Source of the DNA: an uncultured Bacteroidales bacterium
GTDB lineage: Bacteria > Bacteroidota > Bacteroidia > Bacteroidales > Paludibacteraceae
Direction: 5' to 3'
NCBI GenBank assembly: GCA_900318245.1
Contig: ONJT01000024.1
Location: 1-46,742, forward strand
Length of the DNA stretch: 46,742 bases
In this document: positions 1 to 10,807 of the stretch, piece after piece
How the letters are laid out: each line of letters begins with the position of its first letter
Position numbering within the stretch: position 1 is the first letter of the stretch
Notes under the pieces: model-generated
What the model was told of the DNA's origin: nothing
Database searches by the model: none
What the model saw: the letters and a program-made list of their open reading frames with translations, nothing else
Position numbers and translations under genes: made by a program

Positions 1-3000
1 GTTGTTGAACCAGATATAGTGCAGATAAACGCCTGTCTCCGGGTTGATAGTATAGGCCTTGCTCTCGCCCGAGTACGGAGTAGCAGGGTGCCAGTTACAT
101 CCGGCAAAGCAGATAAAGTATTTGCTTGCATCATCCGTCTTGTGGTAAGCTGGATCATAGCCGTTGCTTGTCAGCGGAATGAAGTCTCCGTTTACAAGGG
201 CTTTCTTGCCGTCCTCGAAGGTATAGAGACAGTTCTCATCCACCGCTGCTTCCTCGAACCAGAGACAGTCTTCTTTCTGATAGAGTTTATTATCCGAACC
301 GCTATATACTCCCACTTTCTCGGTAGCCATGAACTGATGCCATTCGTTGAGCATGGTGTAGTTGTAGAATGCAGCCGGATTCGTGCCTAACCACCAATCC
401 GATTCCAGATCTGCTTCGGGATCAGGGTTATACTTTGGACAATTCGCATCCGGCGTTACATTGAACCACTTCATACGAGCTTCCAGACCGGTCTTATCGT
501 GCGAATAAACGGCTGCTGTATATGCATCTTCACCGGCATTTCTATTTTCGTTCTCCTGACCTATATTTTCACCTTCCATATAGGTAAAGAAATAGGTATG
601 GTCAGCCTGTTCGTCTTTATCCTCTTCATGGAACCAGCGACCGTTGACGTTATAGAACGAATTATGGTTACCCATACTACGTGTATAACTGCCATCCTCA
701 TTGCAGAGGTTCGCGGCAGCAATCGGATTGTTTACCCATGTAATGTTGGGAGCACCATCATGCTTCACTTCTACCGCCCAAAGAATATTATCAGAAGGCA
801 GAGCTGTTTGGAAGTTAATCACACCGCCGTTGTTACCCATGATATTCGCACCGCCGGCAGTGGTATAGAGACGACCTTCTTTATAAACATCATTTATTGT
901 AGTATCCTTCACATTCAATACGCCATCGACAATCAGTTTGGCATCATCCAGACCGGCTTTGGAGTTCTCGGCACCACGGTTCTTATGGCTGGTGAGGTTA
1001 TTGAACGAGCGGAAATAGTAGTCATGCACATACTTGCCCCACTGGTCTACATCGTATAGATAGAGCTCGCTTGTCAGATTAACCGTAGCAGTCGGCTTGA
1101 TCTCCACAATCGCACCGGCTTGTACCATCAGCGGATTCGCCAGATTCATGTTACAATCCTTCAAGATGATATGCATGCTGTTCGAGATCGGCAGGATGAA
1201 TTTCTCCGAACTCATATCGATATATACCGTCACATGCAAAGCATCCAACTTCGCCGTTCCGCTCAATTCATAGCAACTCAAGTCCGTCGTCGGGTCGTAC
1301 CACATACGTACTACCGACTGCTCGTCTGTCAGCAAGAACATCGTATTCTCCGGACCAATCATCGAGAAGATGGCATCGTGGTGACCAAAACCGGTAGTGA
1401 TACTGGTAAAGGTGCGCAAGGTCGAGCCATGCTTAAAGGTTGTCGGAATCTCAATGTTCTGAATCGCATAACTCTGGAATGGGAAGAGTTTGCGATGATC
1501 TACTTCGTTATTGTAATAGATATCGAACGAAGCCGTACCACCACGCCAGTCGCCTAACTCGAAGTTCTCCCAAATGGTTGCACCGCTATTAGCGGTAACG
1601 GTACCGGTACCGACGGTGTTATTACCTTGGTCCATATCCTGACCCTTGATGTAACCCCAGCAGTAGAGGTGGGCGCCATTATTGAGATTGATATGACCAC
1701 CCTGTACCATGTTGATCACACCGCATTCTCCGGTCGTATAAGCCGACTTGTTACCACCGCCGGTGGATAGCAGCTTACCTGCTACGCAGATATTACCGCT
1801 ACAGTTGATCGTTACGCCTTCCTTCAGCGTCAGTGTACGATAAGCGGCCAATACCTCTTCCATTGATTTTGGGCTTAGAACTTCCGGAGTCTCTTGCAAC
1901 TCAAAGAAGTCGGCCTTGTGCGGAATCAACAGCGTTACACCCTTCGGAATCGTATAGGTGATCGAGGTAGTACCATCGCCAAGCGTCAGATCCCGCATGA
2001 GGGTAACAAGCTTGCTATCCGAAGAGGTACCTGCGGCAGTGAGGGCTGCGCCCATGTCCGCAAAATAGACATCACCTACTTTGAAGTTCTGTACTTCTAC
2101 CGCCACAAAGGCTGCTTCTACTTCACAGGTCACTGTAATAGAAGTGGTAAAACTCTCTTTGCACGAAACGGTAACACCGTTAATCTTCCATCCTTGGAAC
2201 TGATAACCGGATGCCGGAGTAGGAGCGCTCAAGGTAACTGCATAGAGCGAGGGAGTTGGCTCACCAATGTGTTGTACAAATGATTCACCTACCGTTCGTG
2301 GATCTTCACCTTGGTAGGTTACCACGTACGTACCGTAATCCGAATGCTTATAGGTAATGTCACACGGCGATACAATCGCAATCGGCAGCGCCAGCACCTC
2401 ATGATCGTAGGTATAATCATCCTCCAACACCAACTGACACGCATTACCGGCCGTAGCCTCTTTAGCATCCGCAAGGTTTACTCCACCCTTTAATGCTACC
2501 GTGACCACTTTACCTTCCACGACTTTACCGACGCCTAAGCCGTCTTCACTATCAAATACGACAGAAGAACCGGGTTCTCCGCCGCCGCCAGAGGATGCTT
2601 CCCCATAAATACGTACATTGGTGAAATCGCCGAATGCATCTTGTGACTGTTCAATACGAATCTTTGTCGCAGTCGGAGAGAATGACCAAGTAATATCTTG
2701 ATCTGAAGTAAGATCCACATTCTCATACCCATCAATTACATTCCACACTTCACCAACATATTCTTTAACGGTCCATATTGGATTAGTCGGGGTACCAAAA
2801 TAGTCTCCATCTTTATAATGAAAGGATATTTTGCTTTGCCCGGAAGTCATAAACTCTATCCAAGACGATATCGTCAGTACATCTTTGTCAAATGATGCGC
2901 TTCCAAAAAAACCGCTTTCATATGCCACTAAAGATTGTGCATCAAAGATCTCCTGAGTCAAATTAATCTCCGGAACAGCAACAGCGGGGGTTGCATCTAC

Positions 3001-5463
3001 TATTGTAAAGTACTGCGCTGCCGTTTCGTTCAGTGTTGCGGTTACCTGACGCTTATTAGCCATCGTGAGCGTAATATCCCGAGTGCTAACCGTTCCGTTA
3101 TCATCAATCAGCGCTACCTGCTCTGCGTCCGCTGCAATAACATCGTATTCCGAGATACGCACATCGGTAAATATACCACTATTAAAGCCTTGAGTCTCGT
3201 CTATCCGGATCTTTACTGCATTCGGCGAGAATTGCCAAGTTACCTCTTCGCCGGAAGTAAGAACCACATTCTCATAAAGCACAGCACTTGTATTGTTATT
3301 GTCACCATAATACTCCGTAACTGTCCAGTTAGGTATGCCATAATTACCCGGATCATCATCATAGCTGAAAGAGATGATATTTTGCCCGGCAGTCATGAAT
3401 TCTACCCAACCGCCGCTATTGATAGTCAGTTTATTTTGTGTCTCTTCAAACGATGCTGAGGGTATTTGCTCTCCCATGAACTCGCTGATTTCGTATGTCA
3501 TTACCGAAGGATCCGTATATTGGGAATATAAGTCCAGATAAATCTCCGGTACGGGCGACACGTCGATTGCAGTCTCATATTCCCCTTCAAATGCCGCATA
3601 CGTATCGGTCTGCGGAATTTGAAGATAAAACGCTGCCGATTGGCCGGGCTCATGGTGTAAGTATTCCGCGGTAGCTTCGTTTTTATTAGAAGCCGGATCA
3701 TAGGTAAGCTTGTCTCCGGCTGTCTTTGTCAGCGTCCAATCTCCATCCGAATTGGTAGTAATCGGATTGTAGGCCATAAGACCCTCGCGGATGGAATCCC
3801 AATTCCAAGTAACCGTAGGTTGAGTCAGCGGCACTGCCGTATATCTCAAAGTGAAAGTTGCCGAGACAGGTTCTCCATTGACAGTACTTGTTCCTGAGAT
3901 AGTAAGCGTAGCTTCATGATTGGTGTTTGCCGTCACCGGAGTTTCACGATGCGCACTAAAAGTAAGCGTCTGGGATACTTTACTTAAATTGACGGAACTT
4001 GGGTCAAACTCAAATACTCCATCCGGGTCACTCCATACCTTTTGCAAATCGGTAACTTGTGAGATTAACAAATTAGCCGTTACATCCACTTTGTTAGTTC
4101 CGATAATATTGCCAAAGGAATAAATCTCTTCGTCGCTGGGTGAGTCATCCGATGCAAACGTGATGATGGAACCTTCTTCACAACGGCCACTTAAAGCAAT
4201 GTCATGTGTATCCGTCTGAGCTCCGTTAGTCGCTGTATAACTCGCCACAATACGCAAGGTCGCCGTATGCTCACCGGCTACGGTTGGGGCATAGTGCACG
4301 TCAAATGCACTTAAAAAATTATCGGAAACATAGTTGCCGGAAAACGATTGCGTTCCATTGGGGAACTTAAATTGAGCCGCATTATCGCCAATAATGGTAG
4401 CCGTCCAAACCGTCTTAGTAGCAGTGGTTCTTTTGGCCATAGTGTTCGCATTGGTAACAAGCAGTTTGTTAGCCAAACGCTCACGTTCCGATGCCGCCAC
4501 ATCCATTCCTACATAAAAACGCTCCACTATTTCTTCGTTTACGCGATTCCAATCCAATGCAGACACTACTGTGGAGAAGGTAGGCTGCAAGTTCACATTA
4601 GCTTTAGCACTGGCGGTCTTTGACGTGGCATTATCTTTTGACGTCAGCGTAATAGTAGCCGTTTCGATAGGAAGACCATGCTTATTTTCTGCCGTATAGT
4701 GCACCGGCACAGTTATCACGTTACCGGAACGGGTAGGGATTCCTATTTTAAGCTTCGTGTTACTGCTTGTCCAAGTGAAATTTGAAACCGTTCCTGCTCC
4801 CGACACATTGAATGTCACAGAGGCTTTCCCCTTGTCTGTCGGTGCAGTGATGGAGATCGTTCCGTCTGCTTTTTTGCTCGATACAGAACATCCTTTAATA
4901 CTCTCCTCCGGAATAAAGTACCATTCTTTTCCTGAATTGCTGGACGGTCCATACGAAATGCTTGCGCTTGTGGTTGCGCTGGTGCCCATGTATAAACGAT
5001 TACTATTACCTTTCTTATAGATATTGTAATATTTTTTACCTGACGCTGTTCCCGCCTCTGTTATAGCTATATTGGATTGCGCAGAAGTTGATACACTATA
5101 CATAGACGAACTCATGTACCACGTCTTTCCACCGAATTGATCAACAACCTTAATCTTATAATACCCTGATGTAGTACCGCTTTCAAGCTTAAACAGCACC
5201 GCTTGATTTCCTCTTTCCGTTGCCGAAGAACCTGTAGTCGGACCTAAAGTAATCGAAGTTCTAGTAGGATCAAAATTGGTAACAGAAGTACCTTGAAAAC
5301 ATATAAATCTACCACGCGTTTTGTTGTAGATGTAATAGTTCTTCCCCACTTCCGGAACCTCTGCATAATCAGGCCAGTTGGGTTCAGCTGCCTCTACATA
5401 ATTACTTCCTAACAGCAACAGCATCGCTGCCAGAAATGTTTTAAAATAGTTGAATTTTGTCAT
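1..5463 (-). CDS. Very large secreted multidomain surface protein, 3' end outside the window
   Basis: An uninterrupted frame of 1821 codons runs off the left edge. The N-terminus is a signal peptide (MTKFNYFKTFLAAMLLLLGS, cleavage probably after the following VEAA). Then come an aromatic-rich lectin-like stretch (about 25-190), Ig-like beta domains of the kind seen in Bacteroidales surface proteins (about 200-560), and two homologous discoidin-like repeats at about 650-770 and 850-955. The repeats share W-x-EFMT-(A/S)-GQ and W-x-FSP-x-A-x-KIRI. A Gly-rich linker lies at about 963, an InlB-like repeat with GYQFQGW at about 1088, then a long region rich in N and G suggestive of a beta-helix (from about 1130). 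It is exported and probably surface-displayed; the sorting signal would lie outside the window. Adhesion or glycan binding is inference. It has its own promoter and an unusually long leader. Confidence 0.85.
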   Translation of the reverse strand, partial: MTKFNYFKTFLAAMLLLLGSNYVEAAEPNWPDYAEVPEVGKNYYIYNKTRGRFICFQGTSVTNFDPTRTSITLGPTTGSSATERGNQAVLFKLESGTTSGYYKIKVVDQFGGKTWYMSSSMYSVSTSAQSNIAITEAGTASGKKYYNIYKKGNSNRLYMGTSATTSASISYGPSSNSGKEWYFIPEESIKGCSVSSKKADGTISITAPTDKGKASVTFNVSGAGTVSNFTWTSSNTKLKIGIPTRSGNVITVPVHYTAENKHGLPIETATITLTSKDNATSKTASAKANVNLQPTFSTVVSALDWNRVNEEIVERFYVGMDVAASERERLANKLLVTNANTMAKRTTATKTVWTATIIGDNAAQFKFPNGTQSFSGNYVSDNFLSAFDVHYAPTVAGEHTATLRIVASYTATNGAQTDTHDIALSGRCEEGSIITFASDDSPSDEEIYSFGNIIGTNKVDVTANLLISQVTDLQKVWSDPDGVFEFDPSSVNLSKVSQTLTFSAHRETPVTANTNHEATLTISGTSTVNGEPVSATFTLRYTAVPLTQPTVTWNWDSIREGLMAYNPITTNSDGDWTLTKTAGDKLTYDPASNKNEATAEYLHHEPGQSAAFYLQIPQTDTYAAFEGEYETAIDVSPVPEIYLDLYSQYTDPSVMTYEISEFMGEQIPSASFEETQNKLTINSGGWVEFMTAGQNIISFSYDDDPGNYGIPNWTVTEYYGDNNNTSAVLYENVVLTSGEEVTWQFSPNAVKIRIDETQGFNSGIFTDVRISEYDVIAADAEQVALIDDNGTVSTRDITLTMANKRQVTATLNETAAQYFTIVDATPAVAVPEINLTQEIFDAQSLVAYESGFFGSASFDKDVLTISSWIEFMTSGQSKISFHYKDGDYFGTPTNPIWTVKEYVGEVWNVIDGYENVDLTSDQDITWSFSPTATKIRIEQSQDAFGDFTNVRIYGEASSGGGGEPGSSVVFDSEDGLGVGKVVEGKVVTVALKGGVNLADAKEATAGNACQLVLEDDYTYDHEVLALPIAIVSPCDITYKHSDYGTYVVTYQGEDPRTVGESFVQHIGEPTPSLYAVTLSAPTPASGYQFQGWKINGVTVSCKESFTTSITVTCEVEAAFVAVEVQNFKVGDVYFADMGAALTAAGTSSDSKLVTLMRDLTLGDGTTSITYTIPKGVTLLIPHKADFFELQETPEVLSPKSMEEVLAAYRTLTLKEGVTINCSGNICVAGKLLSTGGGNKSAYTTGECGVINMVQGGHINLNNGAHLYCWGYIKGQDMDQGNNTVGTGTVTANSGATIWENFELGDWRGGTASFDIYYNNEVDHRKLFPFQSYAIQNIEIPTTFKHGSTLRTFTSITTGFGHHDAIFSMIGPENTMFLLTDEQSVVRMWYDPTTDLSCYELSGTAKLDALHVTVYIDMSSEKFILPISNSMHIILKDCNMNLANPLMVQAGAIVEIKPTATVNLTSELYLYDVDQWGKYVHDYYFRSFNNLTSHKNRGAENSKAGLDDAKLIVDGVLNVKDTTINDVYKEGRLYTTAGGANIMGNNGGVINFQTALPSDNILWAVEVKHDGAPNITWVNNPIAAANLCNEDGSYTRSMGNHNSFYNVNGRWFHEEDKDEQADHTYFFTYMEGENIGQENENRNAGEDAYTAAVYSHDKTGLEARMKWFNVTPDANCPKYNPDPEADLESDWWLGTNPAAFYNYTMLNEWHQFMATEKVGVYSGSDNKLYQKEDCLWFEEAAVDENCLYTFEDGKKALVNGDFIPLTSNGYDPAYHKTDDASKYFICFAGCNWHPATPYSGESKAYTINPETGVYLHYIWFNN

Positions 5464-5502
5464 AATTTATAATATTTTAGTTTAACATTATTTTCATCAA
5501 AA

Positions 5503-5578
5503 GTGGCACACAGGCGCAGAATAAAAAAAAATTATTGCGATACAAAAAGATATGACCTGCGCCTGTGCTATTTGCCAC
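5503..5578. repeat. Hairpin next to the start codon
   Basis: Arms 5503-5519 (GTGGCACACAGGCGCAG) and 5557-5578 pair through CTGCGCCTGTG and GCCAC. The outer arm ends about 40 nt upstream of the giant gene's ATG. The pairing is perfect over the 11-bp core. Confidence 0.75.
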
Positions 5579-5626
5579 GAAACTCATATGCATACAAAAA
5601 GCGTAGACTTCGCTGTTGCTCATCTA

Positions 5627-5801
5627 CACACAAGGACCTTCGAACTTGCCCTAACCTAGTAATAAACAACAAAGAAACCTACGCCGATATGACAACACAC
5701 CCGCCAAGAATGGCAGGTACGTATGAATGTCATACCCGTAGGCATCTATTGTTACTTTGTTGTTGACTAGGTTTAAAAAAGTGTTCGAAGCTTTTTGTGT
5801 G
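5627..5801. repeat. 175-nt nested long hairpin (element A)
   Basis: Successive arms pair in order from outside to inside: CACACAA/TTGTGTG (5627/5795), CTTCGAAC/GTTCGAAG (5638/5783), AACCTAGT/ACTAGGTT (5653/5766), AACAACAAAG/CTTTGTTGTT (5665/5755), CCTACG/CGTAGG (5678/5737), TATGACA/TGTCATA (5688/5728), CCCGCCA/TGGCAGG (5700/5711). That is over 50 bp of nested pairing broken by small internal loops. The same architecture with different sequence occurs at 10171-10338 and 28098-28207. Confidence 0.85.
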
Positions 5802-6003
5802 CCAATAACAAAGCGTCAATAAACGCCTTTAATATGTATTGAACCCTCCCACCACAATCATTCTTGCCCCACCGGGCGATTGTATCGGCGTAGATAGATT
5901 CCTGCCCACTTAGGCTGGTGCCGCCCTCCCGTTTAACGTCTATGGAGAAGACGATAGTGTTATTTCAATCCACTATTTTTGTTATCTTTGCAACTTTCGG
6001 CTG

Positions 6004-6034
6004 CAAAGTTACGGAAATATTTCCAATTACACAA
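6004..6034 (-). promoter_or_regulatory. Promoter of the giant surface-protein gene
   Basis: The minus strand has TTG (6034-6032), 20 nt, then TAACTTTG (6011-6004), matching the Bacteroidetes -33/-7 pattern at the same spacing as the other promoters here. The start is expected near 5998. This makes the 5464-6000 segment a transcribed leader. Confidence 0.7.
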
Positions 6035-6217
6035 ATAAAATGGCTAAAAGGTGATAAAAAGTTAGAAATTTGTTTGTAGATTACAAAAAAACACTACCTT
6101 TGCGGCGGAAAATGAATAAATACAGCTTTATTTGATATTCGCCGGCGGGGCGTAGCTGACGCACCCGCACCTACGCTCTCACGTACGTGCGGGAAGTTTA
6201 GGAGTGAGATTGGAAAA

Positions 6218-6430
6218 TTAATGTTGTTTCAGCCAAAGTGCAAAGAACTTCTCATATACTACATACGCGCCATCATCGTTTTGATAGAGCAGTTCTTTTT
6301 CCATTAGATTTTGGATTGCACCGCTGAACGAATCTCCGCGTCCGTACTTACTTTTTTTGCATACGTGCAAATTTACAGCAGAAATTGTTACTATTTTGTT
6401 ATTTTCTGTTATCAATACGTGTGATTCCAA
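6218..6430 (-). pseudogene. C-terminal remnant of an AAA-type ATPase
   Basis: The last 40 or so residues (SFSGAIQNLMEKELLYQNDD, then a segment ending FFALWLKQH) look like the winged-helix C-terminus of Bacteroidales AAA/DUF234-type ATPases, which typically read xLLEKxLI...VYDxFFALWL. No Walker motifs or ATPase domain precede it; the first 30 residues look unrelated. The frame overlaps the end of the next gene upstream by 32 nt in another frame. It is most likely a decayed fragment. The alternative, a small real winged-helix protein, is less likely. Confidence 0.5.
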
Positions 6431-7556
6431 CCTTTTCCAACTTCTCCACGTACTCTTTCACCTCGGGGGTATAGCGACCTAACTCTTTCCATGCGCGGAG
6501 AAACTGGTCGTGGTTATTTTTCTTGTTGTAGTCTTCGACCAATTGTTCGGACATCCATCGGGTGATATCCCGAACGGAGCAGGCACGACGCACATAGCCC
6601 AACTGCCGCAAGGCATAGATAGCCGCCGAAAGGCACTTGAAATAATCCCACTCTTTCTCTTGAATTCGCAAGTACTGCGTCAGCTGTTTCTGCTGATGTT
6701 CGCTCACCTCTTTCTCCCAGAAAAGGACTGGTTTCTCGGGCTTGAGATGGCGGGTGATATATTTCTGCCAATTGACCATCCATTGTGCCCATAGCAGTTG
6801 CCGGTCGTCAGGCAAGGCGTCTATTTCGTCTTTCAGAAAGAGCCAGTTGGTTTCTTGTTCGACGACGAAGTTCCGATGTCTGGCAGCGCGGGGTTGGGCC
6901 CCGGGGAGTTCCCGTACCTGCGCTTGATAAGTAGTCCACACCCAGGTGAGATAGCGTTTGTAGATATCCTCCGCATCTTCGCCTTCAAAGATGAAAGTCG
7001 GTTTGTTGGTTTGGTCGTCACGTTGCAGTTGCTCAAAGAGCGCATTGACCTGCGCGGGGTCGGTCCAGTTCGTGTGTAAAAACTGTTGCCGACGCGTCTC
7101 TGTCTGCGCGGCGTTCAGCAACCATTGGGCAAAAGGTTCTACCCACGGTTCGTATTCCCATATATGGTTTCGGAAGGTCTCAACGGTCAGGTAGCGCATG
7201 TACGTCGTCACTAACTGTAGCGCCAGATCCGACAGCAGCACATTCGGGCATATATCCCCCCACTCAACTTCCGATGTCGCCAAATCGATATACGCGTTAT
7301 TAAGCAACTCAACCTCCGCTTCTAACAATCCCCATTCCTCGCGTCGCACTTCGCGCTCGTACTTCTTGATCCACGCCATCCGCTCCGCGTCGCTGTCTAT
7401 CGCAATATCGCGCCGGACACCCTCTTCCGTGTCCACAATCAACGCACTCAGCAACGCAGCTCCCGCCACGCCGCCTATCTCTATTTCCGTCTGAGCCACC
7501 TTCAGATAGTGGTTCTCATAACGCAATCGGTCGTCTATGATATAGTCTTCTAACAT
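6399..7556 (-). CDS. Unrecognised 386-aa cytoplasmic protein
   Basis: I do not recognise the family. The product is acidic, rich in Trp, Glu, Gln and Arg, has no signal peptide or membrane segment, and appears mostly helical. The ATG at 7556 (MLEDYIIDDRLR) is chosen over an upstream TTG at 7568 because that TTG is part of the -7 box TACCTTTG (7573-7566). The transcript therefore starts only a few nucleotides before the ATG. The gene stands alone between a terminator and an ATPase remnant. Just upstream of its promoter is a 32-bp element shared, at identical spacing, with the toxin-antitoxin operon at 11018. The base composition is like the core genome. Confidence 0.7.
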   Translation of the reverse strand: MLEDYIIDDRLRYENHYLKVAQTEIEIGGVAGAALLSALIVDTEEGVRRDIAIDSDAERMAWIKKYEREVRREEWGLLEAEVELLNNAYIDLATSEVEWGDICPNVLLSDLALQLVTTYMRYLTVETFRNHIWEYEPWVEPFAQWLLNAAQTETRRQQFLHTNWTDPAQVNALFEQLQRDDQTNKPTFIFEGEDAEDIYKRYLTWVWTTYQAQVRELPGAQPRAARHRNFVVEQETNWLFLKDEIDALPDDRQLLWAQWMVNWQKYITRHLKPEKPVLFWEKEVSEHQQKQLTQYLRIQEKEWDYFKCLSAAIYALRQLGYVRRACSVRDITRWMSEQLVEDYNKKNNHDQFLRAWKELGRYTPEVKEYVEKLEKVGITRIDNRK

Positions 7557-7924: not shown

Positions 7925-9139
7925 CTATAATTCTCTGATTAACAAACCTGGATATAAGTTACCTCCAGAAACTTGTTTGAAATATGTAGCGTCTATATCT
8001 GAATCTACTTCATCTGTTGCCATATAGCGATTGTCCCATATCTTTCCTTCTATCGGCTGAATTACTCCAACCCTTTTGTAAGAATATGCACCATCTTCAT
8101 GCAGCTCAGGTTCCAAAACTTCAAATTTTGTATTGGGATTGACATCTTCTTTCAAGCCAATATAGGCTTTAAAGACTTTATTTTCTGTTGTATTCTGTAA
8201 GCGTGCCTTGATACGGAATAACGGAAATTGGTGTTGCAAAGCTGCAATGTTCATATCCACTAGCCGAACACACGCTTTCTGCACCAGTTTCTGATTGCTA
8301 TAATTGCGCGTGTTTCTCTCCTTTACATGACTTTGGTACTTGCCCAGATAAAGGAGCTGAAAAGTTGATTTGTCCGCATTAAACGCATTCACTTTATTTT
8401 GATCATGGTTAGTCGTTGTCGTATAATAGTTATGGTAGAATATGGCGGCTGTTTCTTCCGTCCATTGTAATTGGAACAGATAAGATACGCAACCGACGGA
8501 TATGTTGGCCAATTGCAAGTCTGCTTTATACAACTGGTTGTTATACCAATCCACATCTTCTCTATTATTGAGATCCAGAACGCGACTTGTAGTGTCCTGT
8601 TTTCCTGCTCCTTTCTGCTTGAACAAAAAGTATTTATGATCAAACGAATAGTCGTGTACGATAATGAAAGTGCGGTGAATCAGTTTTTCGCCTGCATCTG
8701 CCAGAATATGTTCGCCGCGAATTGTTTGCCGCGCAATAGCCACATCTATTTTCGTTGCATTATACAATCCTCTTTCTGTAATAAGGTGTATATCCATATC
8801 GCCTGTTTGTTTCTTGCGTGAAAACCATTTGGCTACCATTTTCTTCCCAACGGTCTGTTGGCGTAGAAAGGAGGCGATTTCATTATGTATGTCTGCCTCG
8901 TTGGTAATGAACTGAACTGTCTTAACTCCCAAATTGTGGTCATTAAAACGTTCTGGTACTTCTTTCTCGCGAAAAATCAAGTCCAGTTCCCGTTCAAAAA
9001 TCCGTCCTCCGCGTGACACCATTAATTCACATATTGATGGACGGTCATATCTGCCCAAAGAATCTTGCTGCGCATATATTGGTGCACATGCAACGAATAT
9101 AAATAGTAAAAATAGGTGGTATTGTTTTAATAGTCCCAT
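7925..9139 (-). CDS. Exported protein of unknown function, 404 aa
   Basis: The N-terminus is a signal peptide (MGLLKQYHLFLLFIFVACAP, then IYAQQ). The mature part has no membrane segment and is rich in K, N, Y and T. I do not recognise the family. It overlaps the end of the upstream exported-protein gene by 13 nt, so the two are co-transcribed and probably translationally coupled. Base composition is more AT-rich than the housekeeping block. A GQE(V/I)K tail of the type seen on other exported proteins is missing here but occurs as a detached fragment 110 nt downstream. Confidence 0.75.
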   Translation of the reverse strand: MGLLKQYHLFLLFIFVACAPIYAQQDSLGRYDRPSICELMVSRGGRIFERELDLIFREKEVPERFNDHNLGVKTVQFITNEADIHNEIASFLRQQTVGKKMVAKWFSRKKQTGDMDIHLITERGLYNATKIDVAIARQTIRGEHILADAGEKLIHRTFIIVHDYSFDHKYFLFKQKGAGKQDTTSRVLDLNNREDVDWYNNQLYKADLQLANISVGCVSYLFQLQWTEETAAIFYHNYYTTTTNHDQNKVNAFNADKSTFQLLYLGKYQSHVKERNTRNYSNQKLVQKACVRLVDMNIAALQHQFPLFRIKARLQNTTENKVFKAYIGLKEDVNPNTKFEVLEPELHEDGAYSYKRVGVIQPIEGKIWDNRYMATDEVDSDIDATYFKQVSGGNLYPGLLIREL

Positions 9140-10059
9140 TCTTCTTCCATATTATATATAATACGCTCCGTATAAACTTGTTCGGTGACCATTAGATTCT
9201 CGCGTAAATATTGAGCATTTGTTTGCTCCAGATTCCTCTTATATATTCCAAGACTATAGCTGTCTTCCATATCTTTCATGGTCAGTTTCTTGTCTATTAT
9301 CTTTAAATCCTTATTAATCTTTTTCAATATTGCTTTTAGACCCGTTCGGACTAATCCGATTTGAAGATCTGGAGCTGGTTCGATAACTTCCACATATTCA
9401 ATATTGAAATCAGAGGGAGCAGTGAACTCATTATCATTTACTTCTCGCTTTTCTATACGGATAAGTTCTGATGCTTGAGAAGACCAAACATCTCCTCCAT
9501 GTTTTTGCATAAATTCTTTCATCTTGCCCGTTTGGTAAGTTTGCACTTTGTATTTTATAGCTATTTTATTTTCATAACCCTTGCCAAATGCACTTACGTT
9601 TAAGAAACAAATAGCATTTGGTGCAAGAGGCACTTCTGCATCTGCGATAAATAATTCTGTGTCAGAAACAACCCCCAGAGTAGACATGTATTGTTTGTAG
9701 AGAGTACCTTCTTTTCCATCTATTGTTTTTGTTTCATTTGTTTTGAATAGGCTTGGATATAATGATGGTGTAGGTACTACATAAGGCAAACTAAAACCTG
9801 TTTTTGTATTGTCGCTCCACATAATAATCCGTTCATTATTATCATAGACAGTGTGCAGACCAGTTGCTTTATGGTATTCATGAACACTGTTACCTTTGAT
9901 TACTATGCACACAGTATCTATACCGTCAATAAATTGAGGAGAGGGGTGCGAATAATGACTGAAAGTCCGATAAATAATATCCCCCTCCAGATAGTTGGTT
10001 TGAGACATTGTGTACATTGATAATACTACTGCACACATAGTTAAAATAATTTTTTTCAT
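9127..10059 (-). CDS. Exported protein of unknown function, 310 aa
   Basis: Signal peptide MKKIILTMCAVVLSMYTMSQ. The mature region (YLEGDIIYRTFSHYSHPSPQ...) resembles GLPGLI/DUF4412-type Bacteroidetes periplasmic proteins in starting with a statement-like beta strand and containing VCIVIKGN and an internal hydrophobic strand pattern, but this is a weak impression. It is the first gene of a two-gene unit with the 404-aa exported protein, and lies about 80 nt downstream of the structured leader B. AT-rich composition. Confidence 0.75.
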   Translation of the reverse strand: MKKIILTMCAVVLSMYTMSQTNYLEGDIIYRTFSHYSHPSPQFIDGIDTVCIVIKGNSVHEYHKATGLHTVYDNNERIIMWSDNTKTGFSLPYVVPTPSLYPSLFKTNETKTIDGKEGTLYKQYMSTLGVVSDTELFIADAEVPLAPNAICFLNVSAFGKGYENKIAIKYKVQTYQTGKMKEFMQKHGGDVWSSQASELIRIEKREVNDNEFTAPSDFNIEYVEVIEPAPDLQIGLVRTGLKAILKKINKDLKIIDKKLTMKDMEDSYSLGIYKRNLEQTNAQYLRENLMVTEQVYTERIIYNMEEEWDY

Positions 10060-10140
10060 GATGTTGTAATTTAGTTTGTATGTGCCTACTCACTTATGGC
10101 TTTTCGGCATACTCCGTAAATTAGATGCATATAAAATTAA

Positions 10141-10366
10141 AAGCGCGAACATTATTCACGCTTATTCCTTCTAACGAGGTTCCTGCAAGACCCTACAACC
10201 AAGAATAAACAATAACGTCCACGCCCGAATATATATAACCCTCCCGCCCGTGAAGGGCGCGAACGGATAATACATACCCACGGGACGCCTATTGCACTAT
10301 CTTGTTTTGGGGTCGTGAATTTTGCAGGATTCCGTTAGACCAAAACTAGCGTCAATAAACGCCTTT
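10141..10366 (-). promoter_or_regulatory. Structured leader B between the toxin gene and the exported-protein operon
   Basis: The gene-free stretch 10060-10402 holds three parts. The first is a hairpin AAGCG/CGCTT (10141-10163). The second is a long nested hairpin: CTAACG/CGTTAG (10171/10333), TCCTGCAA/TTGCAGGA (10181/10322), GACCC/GGGTC (10189/10310), CAAG/CTTG, CAAT/ATTG, CGTCC/GGACG (10216/10283) and an apical GCCC/GGGC. The third is the hairpin GCGT-TTATTG-ACGC in a 19-nt block (10348-10366) identical to 5812-5830. The run GTTTAACGTC (10379-10388) is also shared with leader A (5931-5940). No promoter of the standard type was found inside, so it may be read from the upstream toxin-antitoxin promoter. 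Confidence 0.6.
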
Positions 10367-10402
10367 TATGTCCTCCTGTTTAACGTCAGTGAGTGACGAG
10401 AA

Positions 10403-10807
10403 CTATATAAGTTTAATAAACTCTGCTATCTTAATAATCTCTACCTTCGGCCAGGGAATTTCTTTTAATGGATTGAAGTGTTTATCATTTGTCACTATGT
10501 ACTCAGCATCTGATGCTACTGCGCAATCAACGAATTTATTATCATCCGAATCAGCCGGAAGTAACTCAAAGTGAACGTATGTGTTTTGGAAAACGGTTGT
10601 TGATAGATTTGCAATCGCTTCCACAATATTACGCGCAATCTCCGGAGTCGTTTTAATGGCTAATATCTCTTCGTATTCCTCTAAAATATCCGTGTTGACA
10701 CACAAACAAATACGACCCTCCAACACCTCAGTCCATATTTTATGGAATGGGCTATTGGAAGGTAATGCCTGCAGAAGACAATTGGTATCAAGAACGATGT
10801 ACCGCAT
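10403..10807 (-). CDS. PIN-domain toxin (COG1569 type)
   Basis: The 134-aa product starts MRYIVLDTNCLLQALPSNSP and has the PIN acidic set: D7 in LDTN, a middle Glu in the ILEEYEEIL helix, and D in DDNKFVDCAVASDAEYIVTN followed by D in TNDKHF. PIN toxins are Mg-dependent RNases. This subfamily is the putative toxin component often annotated in Bacteroidetes. Its start overlaps the end of the 76-aa gene upstream by 20 nt, the usual arrangement of an antitoxin and toxin. The RNA target is unknown. Confidence 0.85.
   Translation of the reverse strand: MRYIVLDTNCLLQALPSNSPFHKIWTEVLEGRICLCVNTDILEEYEEILAIKTTPEIARNIVEAIANLSTTVFQNTYVHFELLPADSDDNKFVDCAVASDAEYIVTNDKHFNPLKEIPWPKVEIIKIAEFIKLI

What the first reader, a model, noticed from the sequence alone, without database searches (positions are those of the whole stretch)
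5464..6034. A 535-nt structured leader with its own promoter precedes the giant surface-protein gene
Seen: a promoter at 6004-6034, then over 500 nt without a gene, at least five hairpins, and a 175-nt nested hairpin with over 50 bp. Such a long, ordered leader is unusual before a Bacteroidales surface gene. I know no named RNA with this order of stems. It could control translation, stability or anti-phase switching of a costly surface protein (inference).
Basis: partly seen in the sequence, partly recalled or inferred. Interest (0 to 1): 0.7.

Follow-up and report, generated by a model that had tools for sequence, protein, structure and literature searches.

The report
RNA terminator switch before surface genes
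The long structured stretch in front of the giant surface-protein gene is one copy of a family of RNA leaders, absent from the standard RNA library and found across Bacteroidales bacteria, that looks built to switch transcription of envelope (and sometimes defence) genes by swapping base-pairing partners.

Summary
A Bacteroidales-type promoter (6035-6004) is followed by a 535-nt leader that folds far better than chance (z -7.7), with a 66-pair nested hairpin at 5801-5627. It is not a one-off: the RNA family has 8 strong copies in this genome, one of them a second copy in this window (10398-10139). The core pattern is in 41 of 61 genomes of the genus, and a model of the 3' part hits 26 of 119 sampled Bacteroidales genomes. 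Rfam 15 does not list it.

The hairpin is half of it. Strand B (5689-5655) covaries with two exclusive partners: A (5771-5738) and T (5626-5601, followed by a U-run). B:T would be a terminator. In copies with their own promoter B also matches a 5' strand S (5895-5883). A long-range helix and H-type pseudoknots complete the fold. Best reading: a cis-acting transcription attenuator, riboswitch-like, signal unknown (0.65). Targets are mostly secreted and surface proteins, also surface-polysaccharide enzymes, sometimes methylase or BREX-like genes. Several copies without their own promoter lie behind toxin genes. No termination, ligand or expression was measured.

The parts
6004..6035 (-). promoter: TTTG (6035-6032) - 20 nt - TAACTTTG (6011-6004)
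   Evidence: same box 59-66 nt before the core in 48 of 104 copies, other windows 0-15
5926..5953 (-). H-type pseudoknot-like piece of the second 5' type: CGUC (5953-5950)/GACG (5940-5937) and CUCC (5947-5944)/GGAG (5929-5926)
   Evidence: related pseudoknots with compensating loop/tail changes (CTC/GAG, CTT/AAG, CTTGC/GCAAG, CCC/GGG), read by eye, no statistic run
5883..5895 (-). strand S, AUCUACGCCGAUA, complementary to B (5689-5677)
   Evidence: 13-nt complement here (G-U allowed); 10 nt or more in 41 of 41 promoter-type copies, 98 of 820 with shuffled upstream DNA
5812..5827 (-). P2, short conserved hairpin GGCGUUUAUUGACGCU
5795..5801 (-). P3a 5' strand CACACAA, pairs with UUGUGUG 5633-5627
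   Evidence: alignment register off by one for this copy
5783..5790 (-). P3 5' strand CUUCGAAC, pairs with GUUCGAAG 5645-5638 (possibly loop-loop)
   Evidence: over 6-7 aligned nt, 86 of 90 copies exact reverse complements, 23 distinct sequences, cross-copy 10.6%
5738..5771 (-). strand A, ascending arm of the long hairpin (antiterminator partner of B)
5655..5689 (-). strand B, shared by A, T and S
5635..5650 (-). P3' region: 3' strand of P3 (5645-5638), which can also sit in the loop of a small hairpin (5650-5648/5637-5635)
5601..5626 (-). strand T, 3' arm of the terminator hairpin B:T
5596..5600 (-). U-run after T (UUUUU)
   Evidence: longest T-run 4 or more in 83 of 90 copies (the copies' ends had been set by a regex that asks for two to four T)
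1..5463 (-). target gene: giant protein with a signal-peptide-like start, 1821+ aa, runs off the contig
10139..10398 (-). second copy of the RNA in this window, without own promoter right in front: pseudoknot 10398-10372, core, T ends 10143, U-run 10142-10139; model match 10232-10131
10403..10807 (-). PIN_3-domain (VapC-like) gene whose stop codon (10405-10403) lies 4 nt before copy 2
9127..10059 (-). gene behind copy 2 (310 aa, signal-peptide-like start)

Best explanation
The leader is a cis-acting RNA switch that decides whether RNA polymerase reads into the surface gene. Shown by comparison: strand B pairs either with A (the long hairpin, closed by P3a and the long-range P3 helix) or with T, a hairpin followed by a U-run; the two exclude each other because the same B column covaries with both. 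In promoter-bearing copies a 5' strand S can also pair with B. Inferred: B:T stops transcription about 400 nt after the start, while A:B (or S:B) lets it through. A signal read by the 5' part (pseudoknot, P2, P3) tips the balance; it may be a metabolite, a protein or, in copies behind toxin genes, translation of the gene in front. The signal is unknown. Predicted energies favour A:B in most copies, so read-through may be the default and something must promote termination.
For: Swap test on 90 copies: own partner better than other copies' partners in 99% of comparisons for P3, 86% for A:B, 83% for B:T; controls A:T 49%, P3:T 53%, P3:B 48%. Double-change cells: state 1, 416 with 92.1% paired (200 shuffles mean 150, max 181; slid 65-99); state 2, 196 with 94.7% (mean 70, max 89; slid 10-66). 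Position 5680 pairs with 5740 as CG 66/UA 23 and with 5605 as GC 66/AU 23 of 90. RNAalifold on the 3' part alone finds B:T; 13 of 21 pairs have double changes. S: 41 of 41 promoter-type copies have a complement of 10 nt or more to B, shuffled 98 of 820; swap test 35 of 48 copies, controls 23 and 25. A gene follows: of 78 copies with enough DNA, 70 have a frame of 100 aa or more starting within 350 nt; the same search upstream on the other strand, 18. Order-wide hits carry P2, which lies outside the model, in 24 of 40, shuffled 4 of 2000.
Against: No RNA was made or measured. By thermodynamics A:B (p>0.5) wins in 76 of 90 copies, B:T in 9, neither in 5; in the window A:B is the free MFE (-145.3) and B:T costs 9.5 kcal/mol more. 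Two of four measures for state 1, pairs with any double change (19) and further pair types (71), do not exceed shuffles (18.8 and 70.1); for state 2 they do narrowly (17 against max 16; 48 against max 47). The U-run count is partly circular, as ends were set by a regex asking for T. A terminator scan found none in 5400-6200, but it allows loops of 3-8 nt only. Homologues of one target mostly lack the RNA (14 of 18). Targets do not share a pathway. Copies are related, so shuffles overstate significance.
Confidence: 0.65

Rival explanations
1. The RNA is mainly a stand-alone non-coding RNA of about 300-400 nt that ends at the B:T terminator and acts in trans; the genes behind it are reached by occasional read-through.
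For: Own promoter and terminator-like end; up to 22 model matches in one genome, 18 of them at E<1e-6 (G017); P2/P3 sequence similarity in 7 of 9 loci of other genera read by eye.
Against: Copies behind toxin genes lack a promoter right in front; a gene follows in 70 of 78 copies against 18 of 78 in the control; A:B conservation is not needed for a simple terminator.
Confidence: 0.13
2. The leader sets mRNA stability or translation (stable 5' structure, start-codon access), and the U-run is incidental.
For: In seven copies the predicted start codon lies 0-3 nt after the end set for T and U-run, so B:T could cover it; a DUF805b element, another Rfam cis-regulatory motif, follows some copies.
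Against: A U-run follows T in nearly all copies (with the circularity named above); the distance to the start codon varies (median 71 nt, 83 of 103 within 130, up to 348); two exclusive long helices are conserved.
Confidence: 0.1
3. A processive antitermination element of the EAR/LoaP kind: the RNA loads a factor on polymerase so that long surface operons are read through.
For: Targets include surface-polysaccharide enzymes and giant genes.
Against: Many targets are short single frames; the element contains its own terminator-like end; no NusG-like partner was looked for.
Confidence: 0.08
4. A DNA element: a recombination or cassette site (P2 as an inverted-repeat core) that shuffles toxin-antitoxin modules and surface genes; the RNA structure is secondary.
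For: Array of small modules with a pseudoknot and hairpin after each (L290); some truncated copies.
Against: Compensatory changes over some 240 nt, with many G-U pairs, fit RNA pairing; U-run at one end. No integrase was searched for.
Confidence: 0.04

Closest known systems
Riboswitches and attenuators with exclusive terminator/antiterminator helices (general class; recalled)
   Same: A 5' structured domain, then one strand shared by a terminator-like and an antiterminator-like helix, upstream of a gene
   Different: No ligand known; a third partner S at the 5' end; about 300 nt; some copies attached to toxin gene ends
Rfam DUF805b (RF02914), cis-regulatory, 35 nt
   Same: Small element near start codons in some of the same leaders; its consensus looks like an H-type pseudoknot (read by eye)
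   Different: A separate element downstream of the switch in some copies; the switch itself matches no Rfam model
LoaP/EAR-type processive antitermination leaders (recalled; LoaP paper PMC12691694 seen in search listing only)
   Same: Structured leader in front of surface-polysaccharide genes
   Different: Here a conserved own terminator-like end; short single genes are targets too
ToxI, RNA antitoxin of type III toxin-antitoxin systems (recalled; named in passages of PMC8040213)
   Same: H-type pseudoknots, sometimes in tandem, next to toxin genes
   Different: Lie behind, not before, toxin genes of families such as RelE, ParE, PIN, HEPN, zeta; followed by the switch or a plain terminator

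Membership tests
Riboswitch (metabolite-sensing leader) | Conserved structured RNA upstream of genes | tested here: met
Riboswitch (metabolite-sensing leader) | Expression platform with exclusive alternative helices | tested here: met
   (covariation of B with A and with T); switching itself not measured
Riboswitch (metabolite-sensing leader) | Direct binding of a ligand | not testable with these tools
   needs in-line probing or binding assays
Riboswitch (metabolite-sensing leader) | Targets share one pathway that names the ligand | tested here: not met
   surface repeats, lipoproteins, polysaccharide enzymes, methylases, kinase, FHA
Any Rfam 15 family | Score at or above a curated cut-off on the leader | tested here: not met
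   Searches (gathering; E-value): on the leader itself only a below-threshold snoR09 match (E 1.9)
Rfam DUF805b | 35-nt motif above gathering score | tested here: not met
   no match in the window; met only downstream of some other copies
Intrinsic terminator | Stable hairpin directly followed by a U-run | tested here: met
   B:T and U-run 4 or more in 83 of 90 copies (ends set by a regex that asks for T); loop too long for the scan
Intrinsic terminator | Stops RNA polymerase | not testable with these tools
   needs Term-seq or in vitro transcription
Type III toxin-antitoxin RNA (ToxI) | Pseudoknot repeats in front of a ToxN-type toxin | tested here: not met
   pseudoknots lie behind other toxin families; ToxN itself was not searched
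LoaP/EAR-type antitermination element | Acts on distant terminators through a NusG-like factor | not tested
   no genetics possible; partner not searched
Integron attC site | RYYYAAC/GTTRRRY core pair and a nearby integrase (recalled) | not tested
   GTTAAAC appears in some pseudoknots only (by eye); integrase not searched

The most novel reading that the evidence does not exclude
A Bacteroidales-wide orphan RNA switch class runs a regulon of accessory envelope and defence genes: surface proteins, surface polysaccharides, toxin-antitoxin, methylase and BREX-like genes. One RNA strand chooses among three partners (S, A, T), and the sensing end is modular: either a promoter-proximal pseudoknot with S, or a pseudoknot placed right behind a toxin stop codon, so that translation of the toxin gene could itself be the signal for the next gene.
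Probability: 0.25. Interest if true: 0.92.

Novelty: new variant of a known kind. Interest (0 to 1): 0.76.

Why it matters
To my knowledge few regulatory RNAs are characterised in Bacteroidales, major gut bacteria, and how they decide which costly surface and defence genes to express is open. A 300-nt RNA family in many genera, with 2 to 22 model matches in each of 10 genomes of the genus and covariation for two exclusive states, gives a testable handle: one RNA class, many targets, a signal to be found. Its place behind toxin genes and before methylase and BREX-like genes suggests a shared way to control accessory genes.

Tried and rejected
Group I/II intron, tmRNA, RNase P, omega RNA, retron: considered while reading; no Rfam or tRNA/tmRNA match on the leader; reverse transcriptase and integrase genes were not searched for. 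Invertible DNA: no repeat pointing that way in 5300-6700 (hairpin arms and two short repeats).

Defence regulon as the main role: padloc matched few of 92 downstream proteins, each listed family in one member (first 25 of 28 families shown), so defence is a minority; kept only in the novel case.

Leader peptide (trp-like): short frames at the 5' end differ between copies when read by eye; no statistic was run.

Kissing-loop geometry for P3: the helix is well supported, but the flanking small stems are weak (H5 mean 4.0 against 3.5 cross-copy, H3 3.7 against 3.3), so loop-loop pairing is left open.

Wider spread: class-level search 3 of 149, namely this genome, one Bacteroidales genome and one weak match (E 1.4e-5) outside the order. 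Viral contigs: 0 with a first pattern, 1 with a second, 0 with a third, 2 with a fourth; two distinct contigs in all. Plasmids: none. Phage records: searches hit two records, one with only the 5' part. Only 26-33 candidates per genome were scored, so absences are not firm.

Dropped rows: of 104 copies, 9 had no 3' end by the regex (truncated, degenerate or variant), one was lost because two copies shared a name (L066), 94 went on, 90 after removal of near-duplicates. All 104 are from the genus. Of 29 rows, 14 were set aside after reading because the promoter lies further upstream or the frame looks spurious. For the order-wide check I fetched 40 of the 104 places outside this genome listed, mainly the best-scoring ones.

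Full report
What was checked. The finding lies on the minus strand. The promoter (6035-6004), the 535-nt leader without a gene of 80 aa or more on its strand, and the nested hairpin are there. The leader folds at -185.4 kcal/mol against -134.4 for shuffles (z -7.7), with 66 pairs inside 5801-5627. A sigma-70/terminator scan adds nothing; it covers neither this promoter type nor terminators with long loops.

A family, not a single leader. The own genome holds partial relatives at other places; three of them share the central part and stand before other genes, the other three share only the promoter stretch. A 27-base pattern from the best conserved part (P2) occurs in 42 of 101 genomes: 41 of the 61 genomes of the genus and one other-genus genome with 3 mismatches, probably chance; the reversed control pattern gave none. 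In the family it occurs in 119 of 358 genomes and 10 of 33 genera. A same-genus genome (G051) has contigs of the same lengths as Candidatus Colicola equi E1_186, a genus of Paludibacteraceae, so the window most likely comes from that group.

A covariance model of the 3' part (R1) finds 8 strong copies here, including a second one in this window at 10232-10131. It matches 10 of 10 further genomes of the genus, 2 to 22 times each at E<=0.01 (a few of these are the other strand of the same place). It matches 26 of 119 genomes sampled across the order and 3 of 149 across the class. Of 40 order-wide places examined, 24 have the P2 motif upstream, outside the model; shuffled upstream DNA gave 4 of 2000. 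By genome, 9 of the 17 examined outside the family have at least one copy with P2; the other 8 rest on the model alone, and 7 more were not examined. Nine loci were read by eye: P2 is clear in seven and weak in two.

Anatomy. I extracted 104 copies with flanks, all from the genus; 90 entered the alignment. From 5' to 3': promoter; a 5' domain of one of two types; P2 (5827-5812); P3a (5801-5795); P3 (5790-5783); A (5771-5738); a variable apical hairpin; B (5689-5655); P3' (5645-5638); P3a' (5633-5627); T (5626-5601); U-run (5600-5596); gene. Type I 5' domains follow a promoter (TAnnTTTG 59-66 nt before the core in 48 of 104; other windows 0-15, the 15 being at 84-91) and carry strand S. Type II domains are H-type pseudoknots such as CGTC-ACTCAC-TGACG-TTAAACAG-GAGG, whose loop and tail change together between copies (CTC/GAG, CTT/AAG, CTTGC/GCAAG, CCC/GGG, read by eye). 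The window copy has a type II-like piece (5953-5926) and then S (5895-5883), so it looks mixed.

Two exclusive states. Covariation without any structure given puts P3 first, with A:B and B:T among the next, and the same B column (5680) covaries with A (5740) and with T (5605). By duplex energy of whole segments, a copy's own partner beats partners from other copies in 99% (P3), 86% (A:B) and 83% (B:T) of comparisons, against 48-53% for three control combinations. Double-change cells number 416 and 196 for the two states against shuffle maxima of 181 and 89. Two other measures are not above shuffles for state 1 (19 pairs with a double change against 18.8, 71 further pair types against 70.1) and only just for state 2 (17 against a maximum of 16, 48 against 47). 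RNAalifold on the 3' part alone returns B:T and the small P3' hairpin. P3, over 6-7 aligned nt, is exactly complementary in 86 of 90 copies although 23 different sequences occur, while other copies' strands fit in 10.6%. S: all 41 aligned promoter-type copies have a complement of 10 nt or more to B (shuffled 98 of 820); of the other 50 rows 23 do (shuffled 103 of 1000), among them copies whose promoter lies further away and some chance matches. The swap signal for S is weaker (35 of 48 copies; controls 23 and 25). B therefore has up to three partners.

What this means for function. B:T plus a U-run (4 or more in 83 of 90 copies, partly circular because ends were set by a regex asking for T) looks like an intrinsic terminator; A:B excludes it. 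This is the logic of an attenuator or riboswitch. Against a simple story, the predicted default is A:B in 76 of 90 copies and B:T in 9, and in the window B:T costs 9.5 kcal/mol more. If so, read-through is the ground state and a signal or kinetic effect must promote termination. Signal, direction of control and even termination are not shown.

What it stands before. A frame of 100 aa or more starts within 350 nt in 70 of 78 copies, against 18 of 78 for the same search upstream on the other strand. Among 92 first downstream proteins, 20 have BspA-type repeats (LRR_5) and 8 Flg_new_2; others are polysaccharide enzymes (DegT 2, FdtA 2, GtrA 2, GLF 1, glycosyltransferase 1), and many more begin like secreted proteins or lipoproteins by eye. 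The 39 order-wide first proteins include LRR_5 (2), SusD-like, an outer-membrane barrel, FkbH, UbiA, a kinase, FHA and VWA. Defence genes are a minority. On a viral contig that also has a terminase (L325) the RNA stands before genes for a PAPS-reductase/DUF4007 protein, a DUF6079 protein, an 802-aa protein without Pfam match and BrxL, which I read as BREX-like (type recalled). A fecal phage record (MT839469) has the RNA before a frame that begins alike, by eye. A leader of the same layout but other sequence, by eye, stands before EcoRI-type methylases (L295, L296).

Toxin link. In 15 copies without a promoter right in front, including the second copy in this window, a frame of 60 aa or more ends within 200 nt upstream (31 to 188 nt before the core). 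Nine of these upstream genes have a toxin-family match: RelE, ParE (2), YoeB, PIN, PIN_3, HEPN, zeta (2). The RelE and one ParE match lie below the curated cut-off, and the second zeta gene is assigned from a tally of two. One more is a DUF1016/YhcG nuclease; five have no toxin match (L045, L048, L055, L060, L129). Elsewhere the same pseudoknot and a short hairpin follow each module of an array of small genes (DUF4160/DUF2442 and others, L290; that these are toxin-antitoxin pairs is recalled), there with a plain terminator, by eye. In some copies, the window's second one among them, the pseudoknot starts about 4-6 nt behind the stop codon, so a terminating ribosome would sit on it; coupling to translation is an inference.

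Conservation with a target. A 225-aa secreted protein of this genome, picked because it recurs behind the RNA, has 18 homologous loci in 16 of 119 genomes. Three (three families) have a strong RNA match directly upstream, one has a weak one, 14 have none upstream. The link holds among near relatives but is not obligatory. The giant protein has no relative in 60 other genomes.

Literature. Searches on structured RNAs of Bacteroidetes, UpxY/LoaP leaders, pseudoknots with toxin-antitoxin, orphan riboswitches and related terms listed no title or abstract beginning that describes such a family; the lists are capped. I read passages only of PMC8040213 and PMC7366714. The first reports thousands of candidate RNAs whose tables I could not search, so an uncurated earlier sighting is possible. 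The second notes long 5' UTRs in B. thetaiotaomicron, about 2% of which were predicted to hold a riboswitch.

Verdict. Chance folding is excluded. A cis-regulatory RNA family with a conserved two-state terminator, firm in Paludibacteraceae and seen in further Bacteroidales families, is well supported; its signal and direction are open. I describe it as working like a riboswitch/attenuator without claiming membership, since no ligand is known and targets do not share a pathway.

Noticed in passing
window 10398-10139 (-): Second copy of the same RNA, starting 4 nt behind the stop codon of a PIN_3 gene and followed, by eye, by a DUF805b-like motif (about 10115-10082; below Rfam's threshold) and a gene with a signal-peptide-like start.
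   Followed up: yes
L290 2103-5208 (G049:C44): Array of small gene modules (DUF4160/DUF2442 and others); three of them end in the same H-type pseudoknot plus a short GC hairpin and a plain terminator before the next promoter.
   Followed up: partly
L325 11745-1386 (-): The RNA directly precedes a BREX-like operon (PAPS reductase/DUF4007, DUF6079, BrxL) on a viral contig with a terminase; a similar start is on phage record MT839469, and MT835926 (L326) holds a decayed 5' half.
   Followed up: partly
L324 330-2381: The RNA stands before an EF-Tu-like GTPase gene on an 85.7-kb contig labelled viral; whether the contig is viral is doubtful.
   Followed up: no
L295, L296 (G033): Leaders with the same layout by eye (pseudoknot, hairpin, long-range helix, terminator) but little shared sequence precede EcoRI-type adenine methylase genes.
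   Followed up: partly
window 5578-5503 (-): A second strong hairpin (22 pairs in the model, followed by TTTT) between the RNA and the giant gene; not seen in other copies by eye, possibly a further terminator.
   Followed up: no
L007 1256-1222, L009, L012, L023, L026, L044, L100, L118, L290: Rfam DUF805b motifs lie downstream of copies, close to start codons; the motif's consensus reads as another H-type pseudoknot.
   Followed up: partly
L058 and L060 (G000:C8, C7): Two contigs of this genome end shortly after an RNA copy, inside near-identical short genes (METLSIPS...), so the assembly breaks at a repeat.
   Followed up: no
L198, L241: Contigs titled Ruminococcus and Pseudobutyrivibrio MAGs carry the pattern; probably misbinned Bacteroidales DNA.
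   Followed up: no
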